Shown piece after piece: positions 9,699 to 51,372 of a stretch of 64,000 nucleotides of DNA. Position 1 is the first letter of the stretch; every line of letters begins with the position of its first letter. Both the position numbers and the translations under genes were made by a program. The notes under the pieces are model-generated. The model was not told the DNA's origin. It ran no database searches and worked only from the letters and a program-made list of their open reading frames with translations. This DNA is from Halichondria panicea (taxonomy: Eukaryota > Porifera > Demospongiae > Suberitida > Halichondriidae). The stretch is from contig NC_087386.1 in assembly GCF_963675165.1 (NCBI RefSeq), positions 1,414,931 to 1,478,930 on the forward strand, given 5' to 3'.

Positions 9699-11300
9699 AT
9701 GGACTCCACTAACAGCAGCTCAAGGGACCATACAAAGCCAGTGATGAGAAAGAAGTGCAAGTATCAAGTGAGGTGGTTCTATTCAAAAGGAGCATTTCTT
9801 GTTCTATTGTGGACTACACTTGTCAGTGCAACTTTTTGGTCGTATACAACAAATTTGGGACAAAAATTCCTTAAGAAATCATATGGGGAACACTGGTATA
9901 TAGTGCTTATACCACTGTCAAGCTTAACTTTCATTGTCATTCCACTGCTAGGATGGTTAGCAGATGCTAAACTCGGAAACTACAGAGTCTTTAAATTCAA
10001 CTGCTTCTCTTTACTAATTGCCACAATCATTTGCGGCATTCATATTCTCTACGGTCTCACACTAAAGTCAATTGCATTGCAGTACACAAGTGCTGTCGTT
10101 TTAGTACTAGTAGATGCAGTAGGTACAGCAGGTGCAGTAGTTTCCATAACGACAGCCTTACAGCTGGGTCTAGATCAAATGCCAGATGCTTCTTCTACTA
10201 ACATGTCAAGTTTCATTAGTTGGTTTGCATTTTCAATCTTTTTTGGGTTCTGGATTGCTGACTGGCTATTAAGCACACTCTTGTATTGCGTACCATTGTC
10301 GGAAAGCACCAAAGTGCAAATGTTTAGCTTGTTTCCAGTGACGTGTACGATAATTATCTGCTCTTCAATGTTTTTGTTAGCTCCAAAATGGCTAACTATT
10401 GAACCAAAGTCACCTAAAACCCTCAAAATCATCTACCAAGTTTTCAAGTTTGCAGCCAAGCACAAGGCTCCTATTTATCGCAGTGCTCTCACATACTGGG
10501 AGGAAGATGTACCCTCTAGACTAGACCTGGGGAAGACAAAATATAGTGGACCATTTTCTACAGAGCAAGTTGAAGATGTGAAAACCTTCCTAAGAATACT
10601 TATGATGTCTTTCCCAATATTCGTCATTTTAACAGCGGGTGGAAATATACTAGTCAGTTTCGTGGCTATTGATCAAGTGGTAATATTTAACACAACGAAA
10701 TATCATCTCAACCCTAACATCACCGAATGTATATCAAGCATCGTATACAATTTTAGTTTCAACCCTTGGTGGAGTGGTATCGTTACAACAGTCGTTTATG
10801 AGTTTGCTATGTATCCACTCATAAGAAACAAAGTACCCAGCTCTATCCGGCGAATTGGAAGTGCGGCTCTACTTATCCTGCTACTGAATGCGCTCAATTT
10901 GGCTATGCAATTCTGTCCATATGTGTGGGCGTCAGTATTTTTTACAGGAATTCTCACTGGCTTTGGACTTGTACTCCTAATAAACGGGATACTGGAATTT
11001 GTGTGTGCCCAGTCACCATACAACATGCGAGGACTTCTGACTGCCTACATAATATTTCTAGCACTTCTCTCAGTATCTTTCAACTTTCTTATGAAATGTG
11101 TCCATTTTTTGATTTATAAACATTCAAAATATTATGTGGTCCCTTCAATATCAACTGCACTGAGTGTGATTGGATTGGTCCTGTACTGCCTCCTGGCTCG
11201 CTGGTATAAGAGGAGAGTTAGAGACGAGGACTACAATGCACACAGAGTGGTGGAGGAGGTCTATGATCGATACCTCTCTCATGCACAGTACAGACAATAA
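9699..11300 (+). CDS. SLC15/POT-like 12-TM membrane protein, intact, 533 aa
   Basis: Intact. Predicted membrane spans are about residues 31-49, 67-89, 100-120, 130-152, 171-196, 207-228, 298-318, 357-376, 386-404, 410-436, 444-465 and 481-501, with a cytosolic central loop at 229-297. Landmarks are GWLADAKLGNYRVF 85-98, QLGLDQMPD 155-163, GPFSTEQVEDVK 284-295 and EFVCAQSPYNMRGLL 433-447. The TM7-8 loop has potential N-glycosylation sites NTT (331) and NIT (340), followed by Cys344. TM1 has no Glu, so the POT ExxER motif is missing. The KYSGPF variant replaces the usual KYGGPF; the tail ends SHAQYRQ. A near-identical copy is at 37203-38804. Transport substrate cannot be inferred. Confidence 0.88.
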   Translation: MDSTNSSSRDHTKPVMRKKCKYQVRWFYSKGAFLVLLWTTLVSATFWSYTTNLGQKFLKKSYGEHWYIVLIPLSSLTFIVIPLLGWLADAKLGNYRVFKFNCFSLLIATIICGIHILYGLTLKSIALQYTSAVVLVLVDAVGTAGAVVSITTALQLGLDQMPDASSTNMSSFISWFAFSIFFGFWIADWLLSTLLYCVPLSESTKVQMFSLFPVTCTIIICSSMFLLAPKWLTIEPKSPKTLKIIYQVFKFAAKHKAPIYRSALTYWEEDVPSRLDLGKTKYSGPFSTEQVEDVKTFLRILMMSFPIFVILTAGGNILVSFVAIDQVVIFNTTKYHLNPNITECISSIVYNFSFNPWWSGIVTTVVYEFAMYPLIRNKVPSSIRRIGSAALLILLLNALNLAMQFCPYVWASVFFTGILTGFGLVLLINGILEFVCAQSPYNMRGLLTAYIIFLALLSVSFNFLMKCVHFLIYKHSKYYVVPSISTALSVIGLVLYCLLARWYKRRVRDEDYNAHRVVEEVYDRYLSHAQYRQ

Positions 11301-11500
11301 TACAATTGTGTATAATTTATACACTTAGATTGAAAGTCAACTATAGCTGATTAGGTCCATAACATACAAACTTAACACACTTAGCTATTGCATGTTCTGT
11401 CTGTTTCACCACAAACTTATAAACATTCAGTTTCAATGAATAATTACGTCTCACATTTGAAATAACATTAAGTACTAGATCTGTATACACAACTAATTTT

Positions 11501-11558
11501 CAATGTTTATCATCTTCATTGTTGGAACTGAAATCTGTTTGTTTGTCAGCAGTATATT
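11501..11558 (+). promoter_or_regulatory. Class I conserved upstream block
   Basis: CAATGTTTATCATCTTCATT and GTTGGAACTGAAATCTGTTT, 141 bp before the ATG at 11642. GTTGGAACT differs by one base from the consensus GTTGGGACT kept at 39,005. Confidence 0.45.
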
Positions 11559-11641
11559 ATTATAATCTAGACATTACAGTCACATTGAAAACAATTCCAA
11601 AAGTAAATAGAACAGTTCACTTGAGCATCAGCCTTTAAATA

Positions 11642-13248
11642 ATGGACTCCACTAACAGCTGCAGCTCAAGGGATCATACAAAGCCAGTGATGAGAAAGAG
11701 GTGCAAGTATCAAGTGAGGTGGTTCTATTCAAAAGGAGCATTTCTTGTTCTACTGTGGAGCTCACTTTTCAATGCGGCTGTGTGGTCTTATGTGACGATT
11801 TTGGGAGAAAGAATCTTATCAGAAGGCATAGATTTAGACAGGAATACTTTTTCTCGAGTGTTCATTGCACTACCATTTCTAGTTTATGTTACCATCCCAC
11901 TTGTAGGATGTAGGAAACTACAGAGTCTTTAAATTTAGCTGCTTCTTTTTAGTAGTCGCATCGATAACCATTTGCATCACTATTCTCTGTGATACAAAGA
12001 TAAACTTCAGTGCACTGCAGTACACACATAAAGTCATAGTAGTGCTAGCATATGCAGTGGGTATAGCAAGTACAGCAGTTTGTGTAATAACAGCCTTGCA
12101 GCTTGGTTTAGATCAAATGCCAGATGCTTCATCCACCAACATTTCAAGTTTCATCAGTTGGTTTATGTTTTCAATCAATTTGGGGTTCTGGATTCCTGAG
12201 TTGCTATCAAATACTCTCTTTCATTGCATAAACTCTTCGACAATCAATGGCATACAGAAAGTGCAACTGTTTAGCTTATTTCCAGTATTGTGTTTGGTAA
12301 TTATTTGTTCTTCAATGTTTTTGTTAGCTCCAAAATGGCTAATTAATGAACCAAAGTCGCCTAAAGCCCTCAAAATCATCTACCAAGTTCTCAAGTTTGC
12401 AGTCAAGCACAAGGCTCCTATTTATCGCAGTGCTCTCACATACTGGGAGGAAGACGTACCCTCTAAGCTGGACCTGGGGAAGACAAAATACGGTGGACCA
12501 TTCACTACAGAGCAAGTTGAAGATGTGAAAACTTTTGTACAAATAATTGTGATGTCTTTCCCAATATTCCTCACCTTAACTGCGTGTTGGAATATTTTAC
12601 TTGTACTAGGTTTTACAGTGTATAGCTATGTAGGAGTGTTAAACGAGGAAATGCTGTAGTATCTTACTGTCTCCAACACTACTGACAATTGTACATCGAG
12701 CATCATATACACTTTTAGTTTCAGCCATTAGTGGAGTGGTATTGTTACAACAGTTGTCTACGAATTTGCATTGTATCCATTCATAAGAAACATAGTACCC
12801 AGCTCTATGCGACGAATTGGAGGCGCAACTTTATTTATCTTATTACTGAATATGCTAAAGTTGGCTCTTCAATTCTCTCCATATGCACAGGCATCAGTAC
12901 TTTACATGGGGGCTCTTAGCGGCTTCTTATCTGTATACTCCTATAAACGGAATACTAGAATTTGTGTGTGCCCAGTCACCATACAACATGCGAGGACTTC
13001 TGACTGGCTACGTGATGTTTCTATTGTTTCTCTCACTATCTCTGAACTACTTTGTTGAAATGCTACCAAATGAAATATATTTGCCAATATATACTCTCTC
13101 TTCAATATATACTGCACTGAGTGTGATTGGATTGGTCCTGTACTGCCTCCTGGCTCGCTGGTACAAGAGGATAGTTAGAGACGAGGACTACAATGCACAC
13201 AGAGTGGTGGAGGAGGTCTATGATCGATACCTCTCTCATGTGCAGTAG
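11642..13248 (+). pseudogene. SLC15/POT-like pseudogene with 17-bp deletion in the GWLADA motif
   Basis: Starts MDSTNSCSSRDHTKPVMRKRC. Seventeen bases are missing near 11,908 (GGATGTAGGAAACTAC), which removes most of the GWLADAKLGNY motif and leads to a stop at 11930-11932. A TGG-to-TAG change at 12657-12659 interrupts the TM7-8 loop (EEML*), a second TAG occurs at 12729-12731 (SH*WSG), and a net +1 near 12,936 shifts the frame before the EFVCAQSPYNMRGLL block. The sequence between the lesions keeps the family pattern. The 39146 copy shares all lesions except the second TAG. The 17-bp deletion is also present in the locus at 17784. Confidence 0.9.
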
Positions 13249-13949: not shown

Positions 13950-15545
13950 ATGGACTCCACTAACAGCAGCTCAAAGGATCATACAAAACCAGTGATGAAA
14001 AAGAGATGCAAGTATCAAGTGAGGTGGTTCTATTCAAAAGGAGCAGTTCTTATTCTATTGTGGACTACACTTCTAAGTGCAACTTTTTGGTCATATATAA
14101 CAAATTTGGGACAAAAATTCCTGAAAGAATCATATGGGGAACATTTATATGTAGTGCTTATAGCACTATCAAGTTTAACTCTGTTTGTCATTCCACTGCT
14201 AGGATGGTTAGCAGATGCTAAACTTGGAAACTACAAAGTCTTTAAATTCAACTGCTTCTCTTTACTAATTGACACAATCATTTGCGGCATTCATATTCTC
14301 TACGTTCTCGCACTAAAGTCAATTGCATTGCAGTACACCAGTGCTGTCGTTTTAGTACTAGTAGATGCAGTAGGTACAGCAGGTGCAATAGTTTCCATAA
14401 CGACAGCCTTACAGCTGGGTCTAGATCAAATGCCAGATGCTTCTTCCACTAACATTTCAAGTTTCATCAGTTGGTTTGTATTTTCAATCTTTTTTGGGTT
14501 CTGGATTGCTGACTGGCTATTAAGTACACTCTTGTATTGCATACCATTGTTGGAAAGCACCAAAGTGCAACTGTTCAGCTTGTTTCCAGTGACGTGTACG
14601 GTAATTATCTGCTCTTCAATGTTTTTGTTAGCCAAAATGGCTAACTGTTGAACCAGAGTCGCCTAAAACCCTCAAAACCATCTACCAAGTTATCAAATTT
14701 GCAGCCAATTCAAGCACAAGGCTCCTATTTATCGCAGTGCTCTCACATACTGGGAGGAAGACGTACCCTCTAGACTGGACCTGGGGAAGACAAAATATGG
14801 TGGACCATTTACTATAGAGCAAGTTGAAGATGTGAAAACCTTTCTAAGAATACTTGTGATGTCTCTCCTTTTATTCTTTATTTTAACAGCGGGTGGAAAT
14901 ATACTAGTCAGTTTTGTGGCTATTGATCAAGTGGTAATATTTGACGCAATGAAATATCATCTCAACCCTAACATCACTGAATGTATATCAAGCATTATAT
15001 ACAATTTTAGTTTCAACCCTTGGTGGAGTAGTATTGTTATAACAGTCGTTTATGAGTTTGCGATGTATCCACTCATAAGAAACAAAGTACCCAGCTCTAT
15101 TCGACGAATTGGAAGTGCGGCTCTACTTATCCTGCTACTGAATGCGCTCAATTTGGCTATGCAATTCTGTCCATATGTGTGGGCGTCAGTATTTTTCACA
15201 GGAATTCTCACTGGCTTTGGACTTGTTCTCCTAATAGACGGGATACTAGAATTTGTGTGTGCCCAGTCACCATACAACATGCGAGGACTTCTGACTGCCT
15301 ACATGATATTTCTAGCACTTCTCTCACTATCTCTCAACTTTCTTATGAAATTTGTCCATTTTTTGATCTATAAACATTCGAAATATTACGTGGTCCCTTC
15401 AATATCAACTGCACTGAGTGTGATTGGATTAATACTGTACTGCCTGCTGGCTCGCTGGTACAAGAGGAGAGTTAGAGACGAGGACTACAATGCACACAGA
15501 GTGGTGGAGGAGGTCTATGATCGATACCTCTCTCATGTACAGTAG
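13950..15545 (+). pseudogene. SLC15/POT-like gene, broken in unit A (intact in B)
   Basis: Begins MDSTNSSSKDHTKPVMKKRC and is open for 233 codons. At about 14,632 two bases are missing (TTAGCCAAAATGG against TTAGCTCCAAAATGG), giving a stop at 14649-14651 after TM6. About 75 bp later, five extra bases (GCCAATTCAAGCAC, near 14,708) bring the frame back (net +3). The rest, including GGPFTIEQVEDVK, the TM7-8 loop with NPNITEC, EFVCAQSPYNMRGLL and the tail, is open to 15545. The unit B counterpart at 41455-43047 has neither indel and is a full 530-codon gene, so inactivation is recent and confined to A. Confidence 0.88.
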
Positions 15546-15717
15546 AGACAAGAATATAACTGTGTATACTTTAGATTGAAAGTCAACTATAGCTGATTAC
15601 GTCCACACTTAGCACACTTAACTATTGCTTTGTCTGTTTCACCACAAACTTATAAACATTCAGTTTCAATGAATAATTACGTCTCACATTTATAACATTA
15701 AGTACTATTATACACTT

Positions 15718-15861: not shown

Positions 15862-17457
15862 ATGGACTCCACTAACATCAGCTCAAGGGATCATACAAAG
15901 CCAGTGATGGGAAAGAGATGTAAGTATCAAGTGAGGTGGTTCTATTCAAAAGGAGCAGTTCTTATTCTATTGTGGACTACACTTCTAAGTGCAACTTTTT
16001 GGTCGTATATAACAAATTTGGGACAAAAATTCCTAAAAGAATCATATGGGGAACATTTATATGTAGTGCTTATAGCACTATCAGTTTTAACTCTGTTTGT
16101 CATTCCACTCCTAGGGTGGTTAGCAGATGCTAAGCTTGGAAATTACAGAGTCTTTAAATTAAACTGCTTCTCTTTACTAATTACTACAATTATTGGCGGC
16201 ATCCATATTCTCTATGTTATTGCACTAAATTCAATTGCATTGCAGTACACAAGTGCTGTCGTTTTAGTACTAGTAGATGTACTAGGTGTAGCAAGTGCAG
16301 TAGTTTCCATGACGACAGCCTTACAGCTTGGTTTAGATCAAATGCCATATGCTTCTTCTACTAACATGTCAAGTTTCATTAGTTGGTTTGCATTTTCAAT
16401 CTTTTTTGGGTTCTGGATTGCTGACTGGCTATTAAGTACACTCTTGTATTGCGTACCATTGTCAAAAAGTACCAAAGTGAAACTGTTTAGCTTGTTTCCA
16501 GTGACGTGTACGGTAATTATCTGCTCTTCAATGTTTTTGTTAGCTCCAAAATGGCTAATTATAGAACCAAAGTCGCCTAAAGCCATCAAAACCATTTACC
16601 AAGTTATCAAGTTTGCAGTCAAGCACAAGGCTCCTATTTATCGCAGTGCTCTCACATACTGGGAGGAAGACGTACCCTCTAGACTAGATCTGGGGAAGAC
16701 AAAATACGGTGGACCATTCACTACTGAGCAAGTTGAAGATGTGAAAACCTTTCTAAGAATACTTGTGATGTCTTTCCCAATATTCGTCATTTTAGCAGCG
16801 GGTGGGAATATCCTGATCAGTTCTTTCACGGTTGTTGATCAAGGAGTAATATTTGACGCAATGAAATATCATCTTAACCCTAACATCACCAAATGTATAT
16901 CAAACATCGTATACAATTTTAGTTTCAACCCTTGGTGGAGTAGTATTGTTATAACAGTCGTTTATGAGTTTGCGATGTATCCACTCATAAGAAACAAAGT
17001 ACCCAGCTCTATTCGACGAATTGGAAGTGCGGCTCTACTTATCCTGCTACTGAATGCGCTCAATTTGGCTATGCAATTCTGTCCATATGTGTGGGCATCA
17101 GTATTTTTCACGGGAATTCTTGCTGGCTTTGAACTTGTACTCCTAATAAACGGGATACTAGAATTTGTGTGTGCCCAGTCACCATACAACATGCGAGGAC
17201 TTTTGACTGGCTACATGATGTTTCTAATACTTCTCTCACTATCTCTCAATTTCCTTATGAAATTTGTCCATTTTTTGATCTCGAAATATTACGTGATCCC
17301 TTCAATATCAACTGCACTGAGTGTGATTGGATTGGTCCTGTACTGCCTCCTGGCTCGCTGGTACAAGAGGAGAGTTAGAGACGAGGACTACAATGCACAC
17401 AGAGTGGTGGAGGAGGTCTATGATCGATACCTCTCTCATGTACAGTATAGACAATAA
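15862..17457 (+). CDS. SLC15/POT-like 12-TM membrane protein, intact, 531 aa
   Basis: Intact from ATG 15862 (MDSTNISSRDHTKPVMGKRC). The frame is open 19 codons further upstream, but without an ATG and outside the family's conserved start. The protein is close to those at 9699 and 41455 in the TM1-2 loop (ITNLGQKFLKESYGEH), yet its TM7-8 loop (FTVVDQGVIFDAMKYHLN) matches that of the gene at 22106 instead, which points to exchange between paralogues. Unusual residues are MPYASSTN for MPDASSTN after TM4, NPNITKC for NPNITEC, and a shortened TM11-12 loop (HFLISKYYVIP, four residues fewer). The tail ends SHVQYRQ. The gene has no positional counterpart in unit B. Confidence 0.87.
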   Translation: MDSTNISSRDHTKPVMGKRCKYQVRWFYSKGAVLILLWTTLLSATFWSYITNLGQKFLKESYGEHLYVVLIALSVLTLFVIPLLGWLADAKLGNYRVFKLNCFSLLITTIIGGIHILYVIALNSIALQYTSAVVLVLVDVLGVASAVVSMTTALQLGLDQMPYASSTNMSSFISWFAFSIFFGFWIADWLLSTLLYCVPLSKSTKVKLFSLFPVTCTVIICSSMFLLAPKWLIIEPKSPKAIKTIYQVIKFAVKHKAPIYRSALTYWEEDVPSRLDLGKTKYGGPFTTEQVEDVKTFLRILVMSFPIFVILAAGGNILISSFTVVDQGVIFDAMKYHLNPNITKCISNIVYNFSFNPWWSSIVITVVYEFAMYPLIRNKVPSSIRRIGSAALLILLLNALNLAMQFCPYVWASVFFTGILAGFELVLLINGILEFVCAQSPYNMRGLLTGYMMFLILLSLSLNFLMKFVHFLISKYYVIPSISTALSVIGLVLYCLLARWYKRRVRDEDYNAHRVVEEVYDRYLSHVQYRQ

Positions 17458-17783: not shown

Positions 17784-19374
17784 ATGGACTCCACTAACAT
17801 CAGCTCAAGGGATCATACAAAGCCAGTGATGGGAAAGAGGTGCAAGTATCAAGTGAGGTGGTTCTATTCAAAAGGAGCATTTCTTGTTCTACTGTGGAGT
17901 TCACTTTTCAATGCGGCTGTGTGGTCTTACGTGACGATTTTGGGAGAAAGAATCTTATCAGAAGGCATAGATTTAGACAGGAATACTTTTTCTCGAGTAT
18001 TCATTGTACTACCATTTCTAGTTTATGTTACCATCCCACTTGTAGGATGTAGGAAACTACAGAGTCTTTAAATTTAGCTGCTTCTTTTTAGTAGTCGCAT
18101 CGATAACCATTTGCATCACTATTCTCTGTGATACAAAGATAAACTTCAGTGCACTGCAGTACACACGTAAAGTCATAGTATAGAGCTAGCATATGCAGTG
18201 GGTATAGCAAGTACAGCAGTTTGTGTAATAACAGCCTTGCAGCTTGGTTTAGATCAAATGCCAGATGCTTCATCCACCAACATTTCAAGTTTCATCAGTT
18301 GGTTTATGTTTTCAATCAATTTGGGGTTCTGGATTCCTGAGTTGCTATCAAATACTCTCTTTCATTGCATAAGCTGTTTGACAATCAATGGTATACAGAA
18401 AGTGCAACTGTTTAGCTTATTTCCAGTATTGTGTTTGGTAATTATTTGTTCCACGATGTTTTTGTTAGCTCCAAAATGGCTAATTATAGAACCAAAGTCG
18501 CCTAAAGCCATCAAAACCATCTATCAAGTTCTCAAGTTGCAGCCAAGCACAAGGCTCCTATTTATCGCAGTGCTCTCACATACTGGGAGAAAGACGTACC
18601 CTCTAGACTAGACCTGGGGAAGACAAAGTATGGTGGACCATTTTCTATAGAACAAGTTGAAAATGTCAAAACGTTCATAAGAATACTTGTGATGTCTTTC
18701 CCAATATTTATCATTTTAATAGCATTTGGGCAATTTTACATGGATTGAGGATTCCAATATCGATGTTTGACAGTGTCCAGAATCTTAACCTCAACATTAC
18801 TAACTGTACATCAAGCATGGTATACACTTTTAGTTTGAGCCATTGGTGGAGTGGTATTGTTACAACAGTTGTCTACGAATTTGCATTGTATCCATTCATA
18901 AGAAACAAAGTACCCAGCTCTATCCGACGAATTGGTGGTGCAGCTTTATTTATCCTGTTACTGAATATTGTAAACTTGGCCATGCAATTTAGTCGATACA
19001 CATGGATATCAGTACTTTATATGGGAACTCTCGATGGTTTCATAATGGTACTCTTGCTAAACGGAATATTTGAGTTTCTGTGCGCCCAGTCACCTTACAA
19101 CATGCGAGGACTTCTGACTGGCTACATGATACTACTATTTGTTTTTGCAATATCTCTGAATGACCTAATGAAGGATATTGGAACAGGAGTTAAATTGTAT
19201 ACATCAACTGCACTGAGTATGATTGGATTGGTCCTGTACTGCCTCCTGGCTCGCTGGTACAAGAGGAGAGTTAGAGATGAGGACTACAATGCACACAGAG
19301 TGGTGGAGGAGGTCTATGATCGATACCTCTCTCATGTACAGTATAGAAACAAGAATAACTGTGTATCTCCGTAG
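17784..19374 (+). pseudogene. Chimeric SLC15/POT-like pseudogene
   Basis: The 5' half (MDSTNISS..., TILGERILSEGIDLDRN, TM6 ending ICSTMFLLAPKW) and its upstream spacer match the locus at 43375; the 3' half (GGPFSIEQVENVKTF, TM7 FIILIAFGQFYMD, NLNITNCTSS, tail SHVQYRNKNNCVSP) matches the gene at 49789. The switch lies between about 18,435 and 18,640, in the most conserved block of the family. Lesions: the 17-bp GWLADA deletion near 18,048, a stop near 18,181, one base missing near 18,536, and an indel giving a stop near 18,746. In unit B the two parent-like genes are separate, with a third gene between, so the fusion probably arose by unequal recombination deleting about 6 kb. Confidence 0.85.
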
Positions 19375-34765: not shown

Positions 34766-36388
34766 ATGGACTCCACTAACAGCAGCTCAAGGGAGCATAC
34801 AAAGCCAGTGATGAGAAAGAGGTGTAAGTATCAAGTGAGGTATTTCTATTCAAAAGGAGCATTTCTAGTTCTACTGTGGACTTTACTTTTCAGTGCGGCT
34901 GTGTGGTCTTATGTAGATCTACAAATGTTGGTACCAAGAATCATTATTGAAGACATCGATTTAGACATCTGGAAAACTGTTTCTCAAGTGTTCACAGCAC
35001 TACCATTTCTAGCTTACATCATCATCCCAATTATAGGATGGTTAGCAGATGCTAAGCATGGAAACTACAGAGTCTTTAAATTTAGCTGCTCCTTTTTACT
35101 AGTAGCACTGATAACGGTTTGCATCAATATTCTATGTGCTCACAAGATAAACTCTATTGCGTTACAGTACATAAGTTCTGTCATAATAGCACTAGTGTAT
35201 GTAGTGGGTATAGCAAGTATAGCAGTTTGCATAATGACAGCCTTACAGCTTGGTTTAGATCAAATGCCAGATGCTTCTTCCACTAACGTTTCAAGTTTTA
35301 TCAGTTGGTTTGTATTTTCACTCATTCTTGGATGTTGGATTGCTGACTTGCTATCAAATGCACTCCGGTATTGCATAAACTCTTCGACAATCAATGATAT
35401 ACACAAAGTACAACTGTTTAGCTTATTTCCAGTATTGTGTTTGGTAATTATTTGCTCTTCAATGTATTTGCTAGCTCCAAAATGGCTAATTATAGAGCCA
35501 AAGTCACCTAAAGCCCTCAAAACCATCTACCAAGTTCTCAAGTTTGCAGCCAAGCACAAGGCTCCTATTTATCGTAGTGCTCTCACATACTGGGAGGAAG
35601 ACGTACCCTCTAGACTAGACCTAGGGAAGACAAAATAATTATGGTGGTCCATTCACTACAGAGCAAGTTGAAAATGTCAAAACCTTCCTAAGAATTCTTG
35701 TGATGTCTTTCCCAATATTTATCATTTTAACTGCGTGTTGGAATATACTCACACTAGGTTTTAATATCTATGTACATGTACAAGTGTTTAACGAGGAAGT
35801 GCTGCATGCTAACACTACTGACAGTTGTACATCGAGCCTCATATACACTTCAGTTTCAACAATTTGTGGAGTGGTATTGTTACAACAATAATCTACGAAT
35901 TTGCATTGTATCCACTCATAAGAAACAAAGTACCCAGCTCCATCCGGCGAATTGGAGGTGCAGCTTTATTGAATTTGTTATTGAATGTGCTTTATTATTT
36001 ACTTGCACAATTCTGTCCAAATCATTTCTGGAGACCTGTATTTGCGGGGGCTGTCGGTGGCTTTTTACTTGTACTCTTGATAAATAGCATACTAGAATTT
36101 GTGTATGCCCAGTCACCATACAACATGCGAGGACTTCTGACTGGCTACATGATGTTTCTATTGTTTCTCTCACTATCTCTGAACTACGTACTAGTTGAAT
36201 TGCTACTAAATGGAAAGCCTTTGCCAATATATACTCTCCCTTCAATATCAACTACACTGAGTCTGTTTGGATTGGTCCTGTACTGCCTCCTGGCTTGCTG
36301 GTATAAGAGGAGAGTTAGAGATGAGGACTACAGAGCACACAGAGTGGTGGAGGAGGTCTATGATCGATACCTCTCTCATGTACAGTAG
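34766..36388 (+). pseudogene. SLC15/POT-like pseudogene, two frame lesions
   Basis: Copy of 7263-8884 without its first lesion, so the frame is open for 290 codons (GWLADAKHGNYRVFKFSC..., MPDASSTN, LLAPKW). A four-base insertion then gives a TAA at 35636-35638 after DLGKTK, and a base is missing near 35,850. The rest, to LSHVQ, is open. It retains EFVYAQSPYNMRGLL and LLACWYKRR. Comparison dates the four-base insertion and the second deletion before the A/B duplication, and the 7575 deletion after it. Confidence 0.88.
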
Positions 36389-39145: not shown

Positions 39146-40752
39146 ATGGACTCCACTAACAGCTGCAGCTCAAGGGATCATACAAAGCCAGTGATGAGAA
39201 AGAGGTGCAAGTATCAAGTGAGGTGGTTCTATTCAAAAGGAGCATTTCTTGTTCTACTGTGGAGCTCACTTTTCAATGCGGCTGTGTGGTCTTACGTGAC
39301 GATTTTGGGAGAAAGAATCTTATCAGAAGGCATAGATTTAGACAGGAATACTTTTTCTCGAGTGTTCATTGTACTACCATTTCTAGCTTATGTTACCATC
39401 CCACTTGTAGGATGTAGGAAACTACAGAGTCTTTAAATTTAGCTGCTTCTTTTTAGTAGTCGCATCGATAACCATTTGCATCACTATTCTCTGTGATACA
39501 AAGATAAACTTCAGTGCACTGCAGTACACACATAAAGTCATAGTAGTGCTAGCATATGCAGTGGGTATAGCAAGTACAGCAGTTTGTATAATAACAGCCT
39601 TGCAGCTTGGTTTAGATCAAATGCCAGATGCTTCATCCACCAACATTTCAAGTTTCATCAGTTGGTTTATGTTTTCAATCAATTTGGGGTTCTGGATTCC
39701 TGAGTTGCTATCAAATACTCTCTTTCATTGCATAAACTCTTCGACAATCAATGGCATACAGAAAGTGCAACTGTTTAGCTTATTTCCAGTATTGTGTTTG
39801 GTAATTATTTGTTCTTCAATGTTTTTGTTAGCTCCAAAATGGCTAATTAATGAACCAAAGTCGCCTAAAGCCCTCAAAATCATCTACCAAGTTCTCAAGT
39901 TTGCAGTCAAGCACAAGGCTCCTATTTATCGCAGTGCTCTCACATACTGGGAGGAAGACGTACCCTCTAAGCTGGACCTGGGGAAGACAAAATACGGTGG
40001 ACCATTCACTACAGAGCAAGTTGAAGATGTGAAAACTTTTGTACAAATAATTGTGATGTCTTTCCCAATATTCCTCACCTTAACTGCGTGTTGGAATATT
40101 TTACTCGTACTAGGTTTTACAGTGTATAGCTATGTAGGAGTGTTAAACGAGGAAATGCTGTAGTATCTTACTGTCTCCAACACTACTGACAATTGTACAT
40201 CGAGCATCATATACACTTTTAGTTTCAACCCTTGGTGGAGTGGTATTGTTACAACAGTTGTCTACGAATTTGCATTGTATCCATTCATAAGAAACATAGT
40301 ACCCAGCTCTATGCGACGAATTGGAGGGACAACTTTATTTATCTTATTACTGAATATGCTAAAGTTGGCTCTTCAATTCTCTCCATATGCACAGGCATCA
40401 GTACTTTACATGGGGGCTCTTAGCGGCTTCTTATCTGTATACTCCTATAAACGGAATACTAGAATTTGTGTGTGCCCAGTCACCATACAACATGCGAGGA
40501 CTTCTGACTGGCTACGTGATGTTTCTATTGTTTCTCTCACTATCTCTGAACTACTTTGTTGAAATGCTACCAAATGAAATATATTTGCCAATATATACTC
40601 TCTCTTCAATATATACTGCACTGAGTGTGATTGGATTGGTCCTGTACTGCCTCCTGGCTCGCTGGTACAAGAGGATAGTTAGAGACGAGGACTACAATGC
40701 ACACAGAGTGGTGGAGGAGGTCTATGATCGATACCTCTCTCATGTGCAGTAG
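39146..40752 (+). pseudogene. SLC15/POT-like pseudogene with 17-bp deletion
   Basis: Copy of 11642-13248: 17-bp loss near 39,412, TAG at 40161-40163 after NEEML, net +1 near 40,440. Bases around 40,228 read CAACCCTTGGTGGAG, lacking the second TAG of the A copy; this short stretch is typical of the 9699-type genes, so it may be a gene-conversion patch. Confidence 0.88.
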
Positions 40753-41454: not shown

Positions 41455-43047
41455 ATGGAATCCACTAACAGCAGCTCAAAGGATCATACAAAACCAGTGA
41501 TGAGAAAGAGATGCAAGTATCAAGTGAGGTGGTTCTATTCAAAAGGAGCAGTTCTTATTCTATTGTGGACTACACTTCTAAGTGCAACTTTTTGGTCGTA
41601 TATAACAAATTTGGGACAAAAATTCCTGAAAGAATCATATGGGGAACATTTATATGTAGTGCTTATAGCACTATCAAGTTTAACTCTGTTTGTCATTCCA
41701 CTGCTAGGATGGTTAGCAGATGCTAAACTTGGAAACTACAGAGTCTTTAAATTCAACTGCTTCTCTTTACTAATTGCCACAATCATTTGCGGCATTCATA
41801 TTCTCTATGTTCTCACACTAAAGTCAATTGCATTGCAGTACACCAGTGCTGTCGTTTTAGTACTAGTAGATGCAGTAGGTACAGCAGGTGCAATAGTTTC
41901 CATAACGACAGCCTTACAGCTGGGTCTAGATCAAATGCCAGATGCTTCTTCCACTAACGTTTCAAGTTTCATCAGTTGGTTTGTATTTTCAATCTTTTTT
42001 GGGTTCTGGATTGCTGACTGGCTATTAAATACACTCTTGTATTGCGTACCATTGTCGGAAAGCACCAAAGTGCAACTGTTTAGCTTGTTTCCAGTGATGT
42101 GTACGGTAATTATCTGCTCTTCAATGTTTTTGTTAGCTCCAAAGTGGCTAACTGTTGAACCAGAGTCGCCTAAAACCCTCAAAACCATCTACCAAGTTAT
42201 CAAGTTTGCAACCAAGCACAAGGCTCCTATTTATCGCAGTGCTCTCACATACTGGGAGGAAGATGTACCCTCTAGACTGGACCTGGGGAAGACAAAATAT
42301 GGTGGACCATTTACTATAGAGCAAGTTGAAGACGTGAAAACCTTTCTAAGAATACTTGTGATGTCTCTCCCTTTATTCTTTATTTTAACAGCGGGTGGAA
42401 ATATACTAGTCAATTTCGTGGCTATTGATCAAGTGGTAATATTTGACGCAATGAAAAATCATCTCAACCCTAACATCACCGAATGTATATCAAGCATTAT
42501 ATACAATTTTAGTTTCAACCCTTGGTGGAGTGGTATCGTTATAACAGTCGTTTATGAGTTTGCGATGTATCCACTCATGAGAAACAAAGTCCCCAGCTCT
42601 ATCCGACGAATAGGAAGTGCGGCTCTACTTATCCTGCTACAGAATGTGCTCAATTTGGCTATGCAATTCTGTCCATATGTGTGGGCATCAGTATTTTTCA
42701 CGGGAATTCTCACTGGCTTTGGACTTGTTCTCCTAATAAACGGGATACTAGAATTTGTGTGTGCCCAGTCACCATACAACATGCGAGGACTTCTGACTGC
42801 CTACATGATATTTCTAGCACTTCTCTCACTATCTCTCAACTTTCTTATGAAATTTGTCCATTTTTTTATCTATAAACATTCAAAATATTACGTGGTCCCT
42901 TCAATATCAACTGCACTGAGTGTGATTGCATTGGTCCTGTACTGCCTCCTGGCTCGCTGGTATAAGAGGAGAGTTAGAGACGAGGACTACAATGCACACA
43001 GAGTGGTGGAGGAGGTCTATGATCGATACCTCTCTCATGTACAGTAG
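41455..43047 (+). CDS. SLC15/POT-like 12-TM membrane protein, intact, 530 aa
   Basis: Functional-looking counterpart of the broken 13950 locus. Starts MESTNSSSKDHTKPVMRKRC (Glu for Asp at position 2, unique here). Close to the 9699 protein in both variable loops (ITNLGQKFLKESYGEH; FVAIDQVVIFDAMKNHLN), with EPESPKTLK for EPKSPKTLK and FTIEQVEDVK in the central loop, LLQNVLN in TM9 and VIALVLYC for VIGLVLYC in TM12. Tail ends LSHVQ. All POT landmarks are present except an acidic TM1 motif. Confidence 0.87.
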   Translation: MESTNSSSKDHTKPVMRKRCKYQVRWFYSKGAVLILLWTTLLSATFWSYITNLGQKFLKESYGEHLYVVLIALSSLTLFVIPLLGWLADAKLGNYRVFKFNCFSLLIATIICGIHILYVLTLKSIALQYTSAVVLVLVDAVGTAGAIVSITTALQLGLDQMPDASSTNVSSFISWFVFSIFFGFWIADWLLNTLLYCVPLSESTKVQLFSLFPVMCTVIICSSMFLLAPKWLTVEPESPKTLKTIYQVIKFATKHKAPIYRSALTYWEEDVPSRLDLGKTKYGGPFTIEQVEDVKTFLRILVMSLPLFFILTAGGNILVNFVAIDQVVIFDAMKNHLNPNITECISSIIYNFSFNPWWSGIVITVVYEFAMYPLMRNKVPSSIRRIGSAALLILLQNVLNLAMQFCPYVWASVFFTGILTGFGLVLLINGILEFVCAQSPYNMRGLLTAYMIFLALLSLSLNFLMKFVHFFIYKHSKYYVVPSISTALSVIALVLYCLLARWYKRRVRDEDYNAHRVVEEVYDRYLSHVQ

Positions 43048-43374: not shown

Positions 43375-44832
43375 ATGGACTCCACTAATTTAACATCAGC
43401 TCAAGGGATCATACAAAGCCACTGATGGAAAAGAGGTGCAAGTATCAAGTGAGGTGGTTCTATTCAAAAGGAGCATTTCTTGTTCTACTGTGGAATTTAC
43501 TTTTCAATGCGGCTGTGTGGTCTTATGTGACGATGTTGGGAGAAAGAATCTTATCAGAAGGCATACATTTAGAGAGGAATACTTTTTTTCGAGTGTTCTT
43601 TGTACTACCATTTCTAGTTTATGTTACCATCCCACTTGTAGGATGGTTAGCAGATGCTAAGCTTGGAAACTACAGAGTCTTGAAATTTAGCTGCTTCTTT
43701 TTAGTAGTCGCATCGATAACCATTTGCATCAATATTCTCTGTGATACTAAGATGAACTTCAGTGCATTACAGTACACACGTAAAGTCATAGTAGTGCTAG
43801 CATATGCAGTGAGTGTAGCAAGTACAGCAGTTTGTATAATAACAGCCTTGCAGCTTGGTCTAGATCAAATGCCAGATGCTTCTTCCACCAACATTTCAAG
43901 TTTCATCAGTTGGTTTATGTTTTCACTCATTTTTGGAGGTTGGATTGCTGACTGGCTATCAAATACTCTCCTTCATTGCATAAACTCTTCGACAATCAAT
44001 GATATACAGAAAGTGCAACTGTTTAGCTTATTTCCAGTATTGTGTTTGGTAATTATTTGTTCTACGATGTTTTTGTTAGCTCCAAAATGGCTAATTATAG
44101 AACCAAAGTCGCCTAAAGCCATCAAAACCATCTATCAAGTTCTCAAGTTTGCAGCCAAGCACAAGGCTCCTATTTATCGCAGTGCTCTCACATACTGGGA
44201 GGAAGACGTACCCTCTAGACTAGACCTGGGGAAGACAAAATATGGTGGTCTATTCACTACAGAGCAAGTTGAAGATGTGAAAACTTTTGTACAAATAATT
44301 GTGATGTCTTTCCCAATATTCCTCACCTTAACTGCGTGTTGGAATATTTTACTCACACTAGGCTTTACAGCGGATAGCCATGTAGGAGTGTTAAACGAGG
44401 AAATGCTGTGGCATCTTACTGTCTCCAACACTACTGACAATTGTACATCGAGCATCATATACACTTTTAGTTTCAGCCATTGGTGGAGTGGTATTGTTAC
44501 AACAGTTGTCTACGAATTTGCATTGTATCCATTCATAAGAAACATAGTACCCAGCTCTATGCGACGAATTGGAGACGCAACTTCTGGCTGGCTACATGAT
44601 GTTTCTATTGTTTCTCTCACTATCTCTGAACTACTTTGTTGAAATGCTACCAAATGAAATATATTTGCCAATATACACTCTCCCTTCAATATATACTGCA
44701 CTGAGTGTGATTGGATTGGTCCTGTACTGCCTCCTGGCTCGCTGGTACAAGAGGAGAGTTAGAGACGAGGACTACAATGCACACAGAGTGGTGGAGGAGG
44801 TCTATGATCGATACCTCTCTCATGTACAGTAG
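43375..44832 (+). pseudogene. SLC15/POT-like pseudogene, N-terminal frameshift and internal deletion
   Basis: Four extra bases after MDSTN (ACTAATTTAACATCAGC) cause a stop within 17 codons, although an in-frame ATG at 43425 (MEKRCKYQV) could restart with little loss. The frame then runs through GWLADAKLGNYRVL, QLGLDQMPD, GGLFTTEQVEDVK (Leu for Pro) and the TM7-8 loop. Near 44,580 about 160 bp encoding TM9 to EFVCAQSP are missing: GACGCAACTT joins CTGGCTGGCTAC, with ACTT occurring at both ends of the deleted stretch in paralogues, and the frame is lost. TM11, TM12 and tail follow in another frame to 44832. It is the parent type of the 5' half of the chimera at 17784. Confidence 0.86.
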
Positions 44833-46849: not shown

Positions 46850-48463
46850 ATGGACTCCATTAACAGCAGCTCAAGGGACCATACAAAGCCAGTGATGGGA
46901 AAGAGGTGCAAGTATCAAGTGAGGTGGTTCTATTCAAAAGGAGCATTTCTTGTTCTACTGTGGACTACACTTGTCAGTGCAGCTGTGTGGTCTTATGGGA
47001 CAATGTTGGGAGAGAGAATCTTATCAGAAGGCATAGATTTAGAGAGGAATACTTTTTCTCGAGTGTTCCTTGTACTACCAATTCTAGTCTATGTTACCAT
47101 CCCACTTGTAGGATGGTTAGCAGATGCTAAGCTTGGAAACTACAGAGTCTTGAAATTTAGCTGCTTCTTTTTAGTAGTTGCATCGATAGTCATTTGCATA
47201 AATATTCTCTGTGATACTAAGATGAACTTCAGTGCATTACAGTACACACGTAAAGTCATAATAGGGCTAGCGTATGCAGTGAGTGCAGCAAGTACAGCAG
47301 TTTGTATAATAACAGCCTTACAGCTTGGTCTAGATCAAATGCCAGATGCTTCATCCACCAACATTTCAAGTTTCATCAGTTGGTTTGTGTTTTCACACAT
47401 TCTTGGATGTTGGATTGCTGAATGGCTATCAAATACTCTCTTTCATTGCGTAAACTCTTCGACAATTAATGATATACAGAAAATGCAACTGTTTAGCTTA
47501 TTTCCAGTGACTTGTATGGTAGTTATTTGTTCTTCAATGTTTTTGTTAGCTCCAAAATGGCTAATTATAGAACCAAAGTCGCCTAAAGCCCTCAAAACCA
47601 TCTACCAAGTTCTCAAGTTTGCAGCCAAGCACAAGGCTCCTATTTATCGCAGTGCTCTCACATACTGGGAGGAAGACGTACCCTCTAGATTGGACCTGGG
47701 GAAAACAAAATATGGTGGACCATTCACTACAGAGCAAGTTGAAGATGTGAAAACCTTTTTACAAATAATTGTGATGTCTTTCCCAATATTTCTCACTGTA
47801 ACTGCAAGTTGGAATATTTTACTCGGACTAGGCTTTACAGCAGATAGCTATGTAGGAGTGTTGAACGAGGAAATGCTGTGGCATCTTACTGTCTCCAACA
47901 CTACTGACAATTGTACATCGAGCATCATATACAGTTTTAGTTTGAGCCATTGGTGGAGTGGTATTGTTACAACAGTTGTCTACGAATTTGCATTATATCC
48001 ACTCATAAGAAACAAAGTACCCAGCTCTATCCGACGAATTGGAGGTGCAGCTTTATTTTTCCTGTTACTAAACATGCTAAAGTTGGCTATTCAATTTTCT
48101 CCATATGCACAAGCATCAGTACTTTACATGGGGGCTCTCAGTGGCTTCTTATCTGTACTCCTAATAAACGGAATACTAGAATTTGTGTGTGCCCAGTCAC
48201 CATACAACATGCGAGGACTTTTGACTGGCTACATGATGTTTCTATTGTTTCTCTCAGTATCTCTGAACTACTTTGTTGAAATGCTACCTATATATTTGCC
48301 AATTTACACTCTCCCTTCAATATGTACTGCACTGAGTGTGATTGGATTGGTCCTGTACTGCCTCCTGGCTCGCTGGTATAAGAGGAGAGTTAGAGACGAG
48401 GACTACAATGCACACAGAGTGGTGGAGGAGGTCTATGATCGATACCTCTCTCATGTACAGTAG
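46850..48463 (+). CDS. SLC15/POT-like 12-TM membrane protein, intact, 537 aa
   Basis: Intact from ATG 46850 (MDSINSSSRDHTKPVMGKRC); the frame is open 59 codons upstream, but those codons overlap the class I block and do not match the family, so the conserved start is preferred. TM1-2 loop GTMLGERILSEGIDLERN; long TM7-8 loop FTADSYVGVLNEEMLWHLT followed by SNTTDNCTSS with two potential N-glycosylation sites (NTT, NCT). These loops define the same subtype as the pseudogenes at 11642, 39146 and 43375; this is its only intact member here. Tail ends LSHVQ. Confidence 0.88.
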   Translation: MDSINSSSRDHTKPVMGKRCKYQVRWFYSKGAFLVLLWTTLVSAAVWSYGTMLGERILSEGIDLERNTFSRVFLVLPILVYVTIPLVGWLADAKLGNYRVLKFSCFFLVVASIVICINILCDTKMNFSALQYTRKVIIGLAYAVSAASTAVCIITALQLGLDQMPDASSTNISSFISWFVFSHILGCWIAEWLSNTLFHCVNSSTINDIQKMQLFSLFPVTCMVVICSSMFLLAPKWLIIEPKSPKALKTIYQVLKFAAKHKAPIYRSALTYWEEDVPSRLDLGKTKYGGPFTTEQVEDVKTFLQIIVMSFPIFLTVTASWNILLGLGFTADSYVGVLNEEMLWHLTVSNTTDNCTSSIIYSFSLSHWWSGIVTTVVYEFALYPLIRNKVPSSIRRIGGAALFFLLLNMLKLAIQFSPYAQASVLYMGALSGFLSVLLINGILEFVCAQSPYNMRGLLTGYMMFLLFLSVSLNYFVEMLPIYLPIYTLPSICTALSVIGLVLYCLLARWYKRRVRDEDYNAHRVVEEVYDRYLSHVQ

Positions 48464-49460: not shown

Positions 49461-49621
49461 CTTCAATGTAGCCTTAACAACCCGTACAATCAAAACTATA
49501 CAATAGTTAGGAGAAAGTGTATGTGTAATTACTTTTTTGTAGACTTCCTTTCAGTATCGTGGCAATCTCATGTAGTCATGAGTCACGTATAAGCACTAGA
49601 TCTATATACATAACAGTTTAT

Positions 49622-49692
49622 CAATGTTTATCTTCATTGTTGGCTGAAACACTGTTCATTCATCAGCAGCATTCATTCATCAGCAGCACATT
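49622..49692 (+). promoter_or_regulatory. Class I upstream block, modified
   Basis: CAATGTTTATCTTCATTGTT lacks CATC, and CATTCATCAGCAGCA is tandemly repeated. It lies 167 bp before ATG 49789. Confidence 0.42.
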
Positions 49693-49788
49693 GATTAGTA
49701 GCATTGTTTACTTTTTAAAACTAACAAAAGAATTGCTCCCAAATGAAGAAGAGTTAACATAAAACACCTGCATGAAATAAGTGAAAGA

Positions 49789-51372
49789 ATGGACTCCACT
49801 AACAGCAGTTCAAGAGACCATACAAAGCCAGTGATGAGAAAGAGATGCAAATATCAAGTGAGGTGGTTCTATTCAAAAGGAGCATTTCTTGTTCTATTGT
49901 GGACTACACTTGTCAGTGCAACTTGTTGGTCTTACATAACAGATTTGGGAAGAAGAATTTTCAAAGAACTAGATGAGCAACACCGTTTTCAAGGATTCAT
50001 AGCACTACCATTCATCGCAATCCCATTGCTAGGATGGTTAGCAGATGCTAAGCTTGGAAACTACAGAGTCTTTAAGTTAAACTGCTTCTTTTTACTGATA
50101 GGAACAATATTTGGCTGTATTCAAATTCTCTGTTTTCCACTGTTAAATTCTATTGCACTACGATACACAAGTGCTGTAATTGCAGTACTAGGATATGGAG
50201 TGTGTGCAACAAATATAGCAGTTTGCGTAATGACAGCCTTGCAGCTTGGTTTAGATCAAATGCCAGATGCTTCTTCCACTAACGTTTCAAGTTTCATCAG
50301 TTGGTTCGTGTTTTCGATCAATATTGGATTTTGGATTGCTGACTGGCTATCAAATGCATTCCTTTATTGCATAAACTCTTCGACAATCAATGGTATACAG
50401 AAAGTGCAACTGTTTAGCTTATTTCCAGTATTGTGTTTGGTAATTATTTGTTCTTCAATGTTTTTGTTAGCTCCAAAATGGCTAATTATTGAACCAAAGT
50501 CGCCTAAAGCACTTAAAACCATCTACCAAGTTCTCAAGTTTGCAGCCAAGCACAAGGCTCCTATTTATCGCAGTGCTCTCACATACTGGGAGGAAGACGT
50601 ACCCTCTAGACTAGACCTGGGGAAGACAAAGTATGGTGGACCATTTTCTATAGAGCAAGTTGAAAATGTCAAAACCTTCATAAGAATACTTGTGATGTCT
50701 TTCCCAATATTTATCATTTTAATAGCATTTGGGCAATTTTACATGGATTCAAATATCGTGATGTTTGACAGTGTAAAGAATCTTAACCTCAACATTACTA
50801 ACTGTACATCAAGCATGGTATACACTTTTAGTTTGAGCCATTGGTGGAGTGGTATTGTTATAACAATTGTCTACGAATTTGCATTGTATCCACTCATAAG
50901 AAACAAAGTACCCAGCTCTATCCGACGAATTGGTGGTGCAGCTTTATTTATCCTGTTACTGAAAATTGTAAACTTGGCCATGCAATTTAGTCGATACGCA
51001 TGGATATCAGTACTTTATATGGGAACTCTTGATGGTTTTATAATGGTACTCTTGCTAAACGGAATATTTGAGTTTCTGTGCGCCCAGTCACCTTACAACA
51101 TGCGAGGACTTCTGACTGGCTACATGATATTACTATTTGTTTTTGCAATATCTCTGAATGACCTAATGAAGGATATTGGAACAGGAGTTAAATTGTATAC
51201 ATCAACTGCACTGAGTATGATTGGATTGGTTCTGTACTGCCTCCTGGCTCGCTGGTACAAGAGGAGAGTTAGAGACGAGGACTACAATGCACACAGAGTG
51301 GTGGAGGAGGTCTATGATCGATACCTCTCTCATGTACAGTATAGAAACAAGAATAACTGTGTATCTCCGTAG
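49789..51372 (+). CDS. SLC15/POT-like 12-TM membrane protein, intact, 527 aa
   Basis: Intact, MDSTNSSSRDHTKPVMRKRC. Distinct subtype: TM1-2 loop ITDLGRRIFKELDEQHR, shortened TM2 (FIALPFIAIPLLGW), GPFSIEQVENVKTF (Asn for the usual Asp before VK), TM7-8 loop FYMDSNIVMFDSVKNLN with NITNCTSS, EFLCAQSPYNMRGLL (Leu for Val) and a shortened TM11-12 loop (DIGTGVKLYTSTAL). Tail ends SHVQYRNKNNCVSP. Its 3' half is the one found in the chimera at 17784; unit A therefore lacks an intact version of this subtype. Confidence 0.88.
   Translation: MDSTNSSSRDHTKPVMRKRCKYQVRWFYSKGAFLVLLWTTLVSATCWSYITDLGRRIFKELDEQHRFQGFIALPFIAIPLLGWLADAKLGNYRVFKLNCFFLLIGTIFGCIQILCFPLLNSIALRYTSAVIAVLGYGVCATNIAVCVMTALQLGLDQMPDASSTNVSSFISWFVFSINIGFWIADWLSNAFLYCINSSTINGIQKVQLFSLFPVLCLVIICSSMFLLAPKWLIIEPKSPKALKTIYQVLKFAAKHKAPIYRSALTYWEEDVPSRLDLGKTKYGGPFSIEQVENVKTFIRILVMSFPIFIILIAFGQFYMDSNIVMFDSVKNLNLNITNCTSSMVYTFSLSHWWSGIVITIVYEFALYPLIRNKVPSSIRRIGGAALFILLLKIVNLAMQFSRYAWISVLYMGTLDGFIMVLLLNGIFEFLCAQSPYNMRGLLTGYMILLFVFAISLNDLMKDIGTGVKLYTSTALSMIGLVLYCLLARWYKRRVRDEDYNAHRVVEEVYDRYLSHVQYRNKNNCVSP

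What the first reader, a model, noticed from the sequence alone, without database searches (positions are those of the whole stretch)
9699..51372. Invariant DNA blocks alternate with hypervariable extracellular loops
The stretches encoding the central loop (HKAPIYRSALTYWEED to KTKYGG), SPYNMRGLL and the tail (RVRDEDYNAHRVVEEVYDR) are almost identical between all paralogues, including third codon positions, in both genes and pseudogenes. The TM1-2 loop (TTNLGQKFLKKSYGEH, GTMLGERILSEGIDLERN, ITDLGRRIFKELDEQHR, VTSLGQTILLGTFEKND) and TM7-8 loop are very different. This looks like conversion-homogenised scaffolds carrying diversified outward-facing surfaces, as in recognition or chemosensory families.
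Basis: partly seen in the sequence, partly recalled or inferred. Interest (0 to 1): 0.75.

Follow-up and report, generated by a model that had tools for sequence, protein, structure and literature searches.

The report
Transporter-like gene family sharing silent blocks
An animal genome holds a large family of distant relatives of a peptide transporter that have drifted far apart except for two short stretches on the inner face, which stay alike even at silent sites across chromosomes, most likely because the genes keep copying those stretches from each other.

Summary
The copies are ~530-aa MFS-fold proteins remotely related to SLC15A4 (POT), not 7-TM chemoreceptors. Two block 24-mers have 265 and 220 genomic sites (reversed control 0) on at least nine contigs.

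Synonymous divergence is very uneven: dS 0.03 in the tail, 0.06 in the first half of the central loop, 0.7-1.7 around the TM1-2 and TM7-8 loops.

Between lineages 40-60% different in DNA, mostly on different contigs, silent sites in both blocks stay far below saturation, while equally conserved residues elsewhere reach 0.81 of it. The central block's silent sites follow another tree than the gene, and genes on different contigs share exact runs up to 95 nt. This favours ectopic, inter-chromosomal gene conversion limited to these blocks. Tail evidence is mixed: pseudogene tails are more diverged, so nucleotide-level selection is not excluded.

Copies are also mosaics (chimera at 17784-19374). 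Average loop dN/dS is below 1 in five of six sets, so diversifying selection is not shown. A receptor-like role is inference.

The parts
1..408 (+). 3' end of a disrupted copy that begins before the window
   Evidence: one stop inside
1085..2662 (+). intact SLC15A4-like gene (W701)
   Evidence: open frame, 525 aa from Met
3569..5118 (+). disrupted copy (frame change near codon 195)
5573..5818 (+). minisatellite of 4 x 60 bp units derived from the tail block (2 units in the duplicate at 33200-33320)
7263..8881 (+). pseudogene (several stops, frame changes)
9699..11300 (+). intact gene (reference W9690, 533 aa)
10443..10583 (+). central cytoplasmic-loop block of W9690 (codons 249-295)
11010..11051 (+). 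SPYNMRGLL region of W9690 (codons 438-451): conserved protein, silent sites not homogenised between clusters
11145..11282 (+). tail block of W9690 (codons 483-528)
11642..13248 (+). disrupted copy
13950..15545 (+). disrupted copy
15862..17457 (+). intact gene (W15790)
17784..19374 (+). chimeric pseudogene: first half 91% to the W46613 / L012_+366 lineage, second half 97% to the gene at 49789
22106..23728 (+). intact gene (W22010)
26671..27263 (+). decayed fragment (codons ~290-499, frame changes and stops), ~71-80% DNA identity to C10-cluster copies, with a 48-nt stretch of the tail block at 96%; duplicate at 59119-59711
27753..28022 (+). orphan 3' fragment beginning in the SPYNMRG codons (442-530); duplicate at 60201-60470
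28699..30276 (+). intact gene (W28606)
31183..32732 (+). disrupted copy (duplicate of 3569-5118)
34766..36388 (+). pseudogene (duplicate of 7263-8881)
37203..38804 (+). intact gene (duplicate of 9699)
39146..40752 (+). disrupted copy
41455..43047 (+). intact gene (W41446)
43398..44832 (+). copy with an internal deletion joining codon ~390 to ~446
46850..48463 (+). intact gene (W46613)
49789..51372 (+). intact gene (W49747)
53483..55095 (+). disrupted copy of the W22010 type
61152..62729 (+). intact gene (W61059)
63632..64000 (+). start of an intact gene that runs past the window's end

Best explanation
This is a large family of SLC15A4-like (POT/MFS) genes that are single open frames in the copies examined. 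Shown: two stretches, the central cytoplasmic loop (codons ~249-295) and the C-terminal tail (~492-526), stay alike at silent sites among lineages otherwise 40-60% different in DNA and mostly on different contigs, and copies within clusters are recombinant mosaics. Inferred mechanism: purifying selection keeps these stretches, which are among the longest conserved runs in the protein, identical enough to serve as recombination substrates. Ectopic gene conversion between clusters then keeps resetting their silent sites, while the rest of the gene has diverged beyond the reach of conversion between lineages. Inside a cluster, exchange also joins the N half of one copy to the C half of another. 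Functional inference (weak): a constant inner face, a variable outer face and no ExxER motif suggest a receptor- or scaffold-like use rather than ordinary proton-coupled peptide transport.
For: Copies and spread. dS profile. C10 against C5 cluster: silent difference 0.09-0.32 in the blocks, 0.36-0.86 elsewhere. Against equally conserved residues elsewhere: 0.24 and 0.18 versus 0.525 (Mann-Whitney p 3e-7, 5e-8). Not simply a slow clock, central block: within the C5 cluster central 0.077 vs control 0.099; from C5 to lineages 54% different, central 0.120 vs control 0.571. Central-block tree differs from gene tree with one sequence per lineage: delta lnL 48-54 in 3 of 3 sets versus 1.7-21 for 24 control windows; third positions alone 24-29 versus 2.7-9.3 for 18 controls. 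Longest exact match lies in a block in 1506 of 1514 between-lineage pairs; exact runs of 95 nt between C5 and C14 and between C10 and C14 genes that differ at 44-45% of sites; with residues held fixed, 113 of 273 sampled pairs reach p<=0.01, in 36 of 65 lineage pairs. Holds without the loci chosen by the block 24-mers. A second POT-like family shows the dip only where the loop protein is itself conserved. Mosaics: contiguous parts conflict (delta lnL 21-162), interleaved codons much less (1.9-13.5); chimeras.
Against: Tail blocks of this cluster's pseudogenes are more diverged than those of intact genes (silent 39/497 vs 16/528, p 7e-4; replacement 40/1597 vs 14/1695, p 2e-4; tests on counts), which fits selection on silent sites there, or rarer conversion of dead copies; copies are not independent. 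Central blocks do not differ in this cluster (58/542 vs 61/541), but in the small MSCK group they do (15/62 in 2 pseudogenes, 10/93 in 3 intact). Most pseudogenes look young, so the test is weak. In the tail two other frames are open in 55 and 51 of 62 copies (0-4 of 62 in control segments), so an overlapping function there is not excluded. Tail tree conflict is modest (AU 0.002-0.036). 29 of 65 lineage pairs gave no sampled pair at p<=0.01. With all 54 sequences all eight control windows also conflict with the rest, so conflict is specific to the blocks only at the level of deep lineages. The blocks (~100-150 nt) are shorter than the ~200 bp quoted for yeast (PMC3924818, passages read). One genome only. 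Function untested.
Confidence: 0.6

Rival explanations
1. Nucleotide-level purifying selection: the two blocks carry an RNA, codon-order or DNA element that fixes silent sites in every copy, without exchange between loci.
For: Same codons at many positions in all lineages, next to freely varying ones; intact tails less diverged than pseudogene tails; two other frames of the tail mostly open (55 and 51 of 62); blocks shorter than usual conversion substrates.
Against: Silent changes do accumulate in the central block within clusters at 0.55-0.88 of the control but hardly further between lineages; silent sites carry a tree that conflicts with the gene tree; no unusual RNA fold (z +1.0 and -0.56), no Rfam match in the window, no other frame open in all 62 copies; the second family is saturated at silent sites where its loop protein has diverged, and family 1 x family 2 is near saturation (0.82 central, 1.10 tail).
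Confidence: 0.26
2. Ordinary birth-and-death: duplicates under strong constraint inside and weaker constraint outside, with no conversion.
For: Segmental duplication and many disrupted copies in the cluster; dN/dS 0.09-0.24 inside, 0.41-1.06 outside.
Against: Uniform dS is expected and not seen; equally conserved residues elsewhere are near silent saturation; mosaics with contiguous-segment conflict.
Confidence: 0.08
3. Blocks are spread by reverse-transcribed copies (cDNA-mediated conversion), which would also explain single-frame genes.
For: Full-length single-frame matches are common, though the 62 genes used were selected as long open frames; the tail lies at the 3' end.
Against: The central block is mid-gene; no 3' gradient: codons 300-480 are not homogenised between clusters.
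Confidence: 0.05

Closest known systems
SLC15A4/SLC15A3 (PHT1/PHT2), POT/PTR family of the major facilitator superfamily
   Same: Profile match to SLC15A4 E 2e-17; the predicted fold's best structural match is SLC15A4 (Z 33.9, rmsd 3.0 over 390 residues), with other MFS proteins such as NorA (31.7) and PepT2 (31.5) close behind; shared GGPF.tE.VEDVK in the TM6-7 loop.
   Different: About 15-17% identity over the fold; no ExxER in TM1 (0 of 62) and no Lys in the ten TM4 columns read; only 1 of 30 members matches Pfam PTR2 at E<=1; a very large family.
Zebrafish NLR-B30.2 genes (PMC4852459, passages read)
   Same: Large family in which one domain has low dS across otherwise diverged groups and a different tree, explained by gene conversion between groups.
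   Different: There whole exons, with the cross-group conversion in groups on one chromosome, and the domain shared across groups is the recognition domain; here ~100-150 nt inside one open frame, across contigs, in the constant inner part.
Animal chemoreceptor clusters (general knowledge, no call)
   Same: Tandem arrays, many pseudogenes, variable membrane proteins.
   Different: MFS transporter fold instead of a 7-TM fold; no sensory evidence.

Membership tests
POT/PTR (SLC15) family | Sequence relationship | tested here: met
   Profile of 30 members against PDB chains: SLC15A4 2.4e-17, SLC15A3 2.6e-7, bacterial peptide symporter (2xut/4uvm) 3.6e-6
POT/PTR (SLC15) family | MFS fold | tested here: met
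   AF2 model pLDDT 75, pTM 0.79; SLC15A4 Z 33.9; low-confidence parts 1-24, 270-279, 508-533, which include half of the central block and most of the tail
POT/PTR (SLC15) family | ExxER(F/Y) proton/peptide-coupling motif in TM1 (recalled) | tested here: not met
   0 of 62 proteins have E..E[RK] in the first 80 residues
POT/PTR (SLC15) family | Passes Pfam PTR2 gathering score | tested here: not met
   1 of 30 members matches PTR2 at all, best E 7e-4; the whole-genome PTR2 search lists one family member (C3:4409519), below cut-off
POT/PTR (SLC15) family | Proton-coupled peptide transport | not testable with these tools
   needs an assay
Gene families homogenised by ectopic gene conversion | dS heterogeneity along the gene not explained by amino-acid constraint | tested here: met
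Gene families homogenised by ectopic gene conversion | Segment history conflicts with gene history, at silent sites | tested here: met
   central; tail weaker
Gene families homogenised by ectopic gene conversion | Within-species homogeneity with between-species divergence | not testable with these tools
   no relative found in viral contigs or genome contigs, which hold viruses, bacteria and archaea
Positively selected recognition receptors | dN/dS above 1 in exposed loops | tested here: inconclusive
   loop averages 0.41-0.69 in five sets, 1.06 (not significant) in one; three cluster-wide windows 1.11-1.36; no single-site test was run

The most novel reading that the evidence does not exclude
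A genome-wide conversion network confined to sub-200-bp islands: two ~100-150 nt blocks are kept alike among a few hundred otherwise half-diverged genes on nine or more contigs, because protein constraint there preserves enough identity to keep conversion going (a self-sustaining loop). The same islands act as anchors at which halves carrying different extracellular loops are exchanged, building a combinatorial set of outward-facing receptors derived from a peptide transporter.
Probability: 0.25. Interest if true: 0.75.

Novelty: new variant of a known kind. Interest (0 to 1): 0.52.

Why it matters
Gene conversion is said to occur mainly above 80% identity and to be efficient with about 200 bp of identity in yeast, though shorter cases are not ruled out (PMC3924818, passages read). 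Here lineages 40-60% different, mostly on different contigs, appear still to exchange the two stretches that selection keeps similar. If right, this gives a natural measurement of how short a substrate can be, shows how selection on protein can feed back on silent sites (a trap for dS-based dating and dN/dS tests), and describes a large transporter-derived membrane-protein repertoire with a constant inside and a variable outside.

Tried and rejected
Chemoreceptor/GPCR identity: rejected; PDB profile search and fold search give SLC15A4 and other MFS proteins. Pfam and NCBIfam gave no useful family for the single members tried; the Peptidase_C57 hit is below its cut-off and taken as chance.

Amino-acid conservation or codon bias as the whole cause of low silent divergence: rejected by the control of equally conserved columns and the difference expected at codon-usage saturation. 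Overlapping reading frame: no other frame is open in all copies, but two frames of the tail are open in 55 and 51 of 62, so it is not excluded for the tail. RNA structure: no sign in the reference gene, no Rfam family in the window.

Pseudogene test of conversion versus constraint: not decisive; for the tail it points against pure conversion. These copies were found by a block core (up to 5 of 24 mismatches), which favours good blocks; 'pseudo/other' (35 of 97 copies) also holds some long frames that only lack the N-terminal anchor (two in the C10 cluster; L019, L021, L050, L064, L070).

Tree conflict with all 54 sequences: not specific to the blocks. Triplet recombination scan: 9 of 15 copies reach the permutation floor of 5e-5, which does not by itself survive correction for 2728 triplets; the chimera is judged by its identity profile. 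Positive selection in loops: not found on average. A length threshold for conversion: suggestive only (10 runs, rho -0.62, p 0.054). Relatives in other species: none in viral contigs and genome contigs. Papers: six searches, listings seen; none of the titles listed concerns an SLC15-like expansion (SLC15 count 0 in all 20 listed of 186); this does not show that none exists. Two papers were read in passages (PMC4852459, PMC3924818).

Rows dropped: three frames without the N-terminal anchor (L009_+4961, L021, W53497) and L050, L064, L070; L019 from alignments; eight near-identical copies from the 54-taxon trees; L014 from the tail table; C10a-C10b pairs from the between-lineage counts. Confidence was lowered from 0.62 to 0.60 on rechecking, for the open tail frames and the 29 of 65 lineage pairs without support.
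Full report
What was checked. The window is G000:C10:1414931-1478930 of a 131-Mb genome in 39 contigs. It has Wnt matches (10), so it is taken to be an animal's; I suspect a sponge from recall, untested. The window holds a tandem cluster of genes of about 530 codons in a single open frame: ten intact within the window, one straddling its end, the rest disrupted or fragments. In the 1405931-1519000 stretch fetched there are 34 central and 37 tail cores; the cluster's outer ends were not sought.

What the proteins are. The members tried hit no useful Pfam or NCBIfam family, but phmmer finds human SLC15A4 (E 6e-6, residues 35-311) and a 30-member profile finds it at 2e-17. The predicted model (pLDDT 75, pTM 0.79) is an MFS fold. 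Its top Foldseek matches are SLC15A3 and SLC15A4; by Z, SLC15A4 leads with 33.9, followed closely by SLC15A3, NorA and PepT2. The TM1 ExxER motif is missing in 62 of 62, and no Lys appears in the ten TM4 columns read. The genome also has genes that do match Pfam PTR2, among them a second run of long single-frame genes around C3:5.66-5.85 Mb.

Family size. tblastn scored only its best 81 of 673 candidates and lists 82 matches. The 24-mers from the central block and from the tail (up to 2 mismatches) have 265 and 220 sites, with 0 for the reversed patterns. The sites listed lie on C2, C3, C5, C6, C7, C8, C10, C14 and C15; both lists are truncated.

Uneven dS. In 11 representatives of the window's cluster dS is 0.03 in the tail, 0.06 at codons 251-271, 0.17-0.43 over the rest of the central loop, 0.25-0.29 at SPYNMRGLL, and 0.7-1.7 around the TM1-2 and TM7-8 loops; TM3 reaches 1.1. 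Between the C10 and C5 clusters (about 47% protein identity), the share of same-residue codons that differ is 0.17-0.32 at codons 231-300 and 0.09-0.16 at 481-530. Elsewhere it is 0.36-0.86. With twelve lineages, columns with at least 80% conserved residue show 0.243 (central, 37 columns), 0.179 (tail, 28) and 0.525 (97 control columns); codon-usage saturation would be 0.60-0.65. So residue conservation and codon bias do not explain the two blocks. The same holds with only the 48 of 62 genes not chosen by block 24-mers, and with the 24-mer codons left out: 0.31 and 0.19 against 0.53.

Conversion or slow clock? Under a slow silent clock the ratio block:control should be similar at short and long distance. 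In the central block it is 0.55-0.88 within clusters but 0.36-0.55 between lineages, where the control is near saturation. Most sharply, within the C5 cluster central 0.077 against control 0.099, and from C5 to L049/MSCK/L043 (54% different DNA) central 0.120 (interval 0.069-0.183) against 0.571. A mix of frozen and free sites set to the C5 intervals would predict about 0.2 or more (my arithmetic, no call), so it is disfavoured, but not by a wide margin. For the tail the ratio varies without a clear trend.

Tree tests. With one sequence per lineage, eight control windows of 37-50 codons in three sets fit the gene tree within 1.7-21 lnL (3 of 24 with AU<0.05). The central block misses by 48-54 (AU<2e-4 in 3 of 3), the tail by 11-17 (AU 0.016-0.023). 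On third positions alone: central 24-29 (AU<=1.1e-4), tail 16-18 (AU 0.002-0.012), 18 controls 2.7-9.3 (2 of 18 with AU<0.05). In the central block L025, and more weakly L046, go with the C10 type, while in the rest they group with the C15 lineage. Without the loci picked by 24-mers: central 49 (all) and 27 (third), tail 14 and 13 (AU 0.036 and 0.014), three controls 0.1-10, one with AU 0.04.

Exact runs. The longest exact match between members of different lineages is in the central block in 903 and in the tail in 603 of 1514 pairs, elsewhere in 8; medians 32, 28 and 14 nt, maxima 97, 95 and 42. Of the 1514 pairs 1451 lie on different contigs; the 97-nt run is between two C6 genes, the 95-nt runs are between C5 and C14 and between C10 and C14 genes that differ at 44-45% of sites. 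Shuffling the silent states while keeping the residues in place, 113 of 273 sampled pairs reach p<=0.01 and 192 p<=0.05; 36 of 65 lineage pairs have at least one pair at p<=0.01, 29 none. Among conserved runs, other stretches of 19-28 codons (152-179, 22-41, 432-450) sit at 0.81-0.85 of saturation. A substrate-length threshold is suggested, but over ten runs rho is -0.62, p 0.054, and the 27-codon tail run is no longer than the run at 152-179.

A related family as control. In 14 genes of the second POT-like family the loop keeps a similar motif. Where its loop protein is conserved (86% identity; 16 pairs of C3, C2 and C5 copies) the central silent ratio is 0.50 against 0.82 in the rest; where it has diverged (46%; 57 pairs) it is 0.95, and between the two families 0.82. 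The effect therefore follows protein identity and is not an ancient property of the motif, though lineage-specific constraint is not excluded.

Mosaics. In the C10 and C5 clusters, N half and C half reject each other's trees (delta lnL 77-162), contiguous splits of each half by 21-86, while interleaved codons differ by 1.9-13.5 (one of four interleaved controls reached AU 0.02). The copy at 17784-19374 is ~91% to one lineage in its first half and 97% to the gene at 49789 in its second. L012_+366, an intact gene, joins a W46613-like N half (91%) to a W15790/W22010-like C half (85-86%). One fragment begins in the SPYNMRG codons at 27753, another ends inside the tail block at 27263.

Selection. 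In close pairs dN/dS is 0.41-0.69 in extracellular loops of five sets (1.06 in C15), 0.36-0.60 in helices and 0.09-0.24 inside. The outer face is less constrained; positive selection is not shown. Three cluster-wide windows exceed 1.

Evidence against. In this cluster pseudogene tails carry more silent and replacement changes than intact tails (p 7e-4, 2e-4), pseudogene central blocks do not; in the small MSCK group the central blocks of two pseudogenes do. Two other frames of the tail are mostly open. The blocks are shorter than the usual ~200 bp. One genome only.

Verdict. A real and unusual pattern in an SLC15A4-like family, best explained by identity-dependent ectopic conversion of two inner-face blocks (stronger for the central one), with unproven function. 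The nearest published pattern of which I read passages is the zebrafish NLR-B30.2 family.

Noticed in passing
window 5573-5818 and 33200-33320: A 60-bp minisatellite made of the tail block's last codons plus neighbouring bases: 4 units in one segmental copy, 2 in the other.
   Followed up: partly
window 139-17025 ~ 27753-44573; 24230-31551 ~ 56679-64000: Recent segmental duplications of the cluster, 96.4-98.6% identical; whether real or an assembly haplotype artefact was not tested.
   Followed up: partly
G000:C3:5664400-5851000, C2:1.64 Mb, C5:2.23-2.27 Mb, C8:4.2 Mb (L079-L093): A second set of long single-frame POT-like genes (14 of 15 fetched with frames of 595-672 aa) that pass Pfam PTR2 and share the loop motif.
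   Followed up: partly
window 27753, 60201 and G000:C10:1511496: Orphan 3' fragments of the gene start at the same place, in the SPYNMRG codons.
   Followed up: no
G000:C3, C6, C12: Wnt matches indicate that the genome is an animal's.
   Followed up: no
window 26671-27263: A decayed fragment whose best-kept stretch is 48 nt of the tail block (96%), ending abruptly inside that block.
   Followed up: partly
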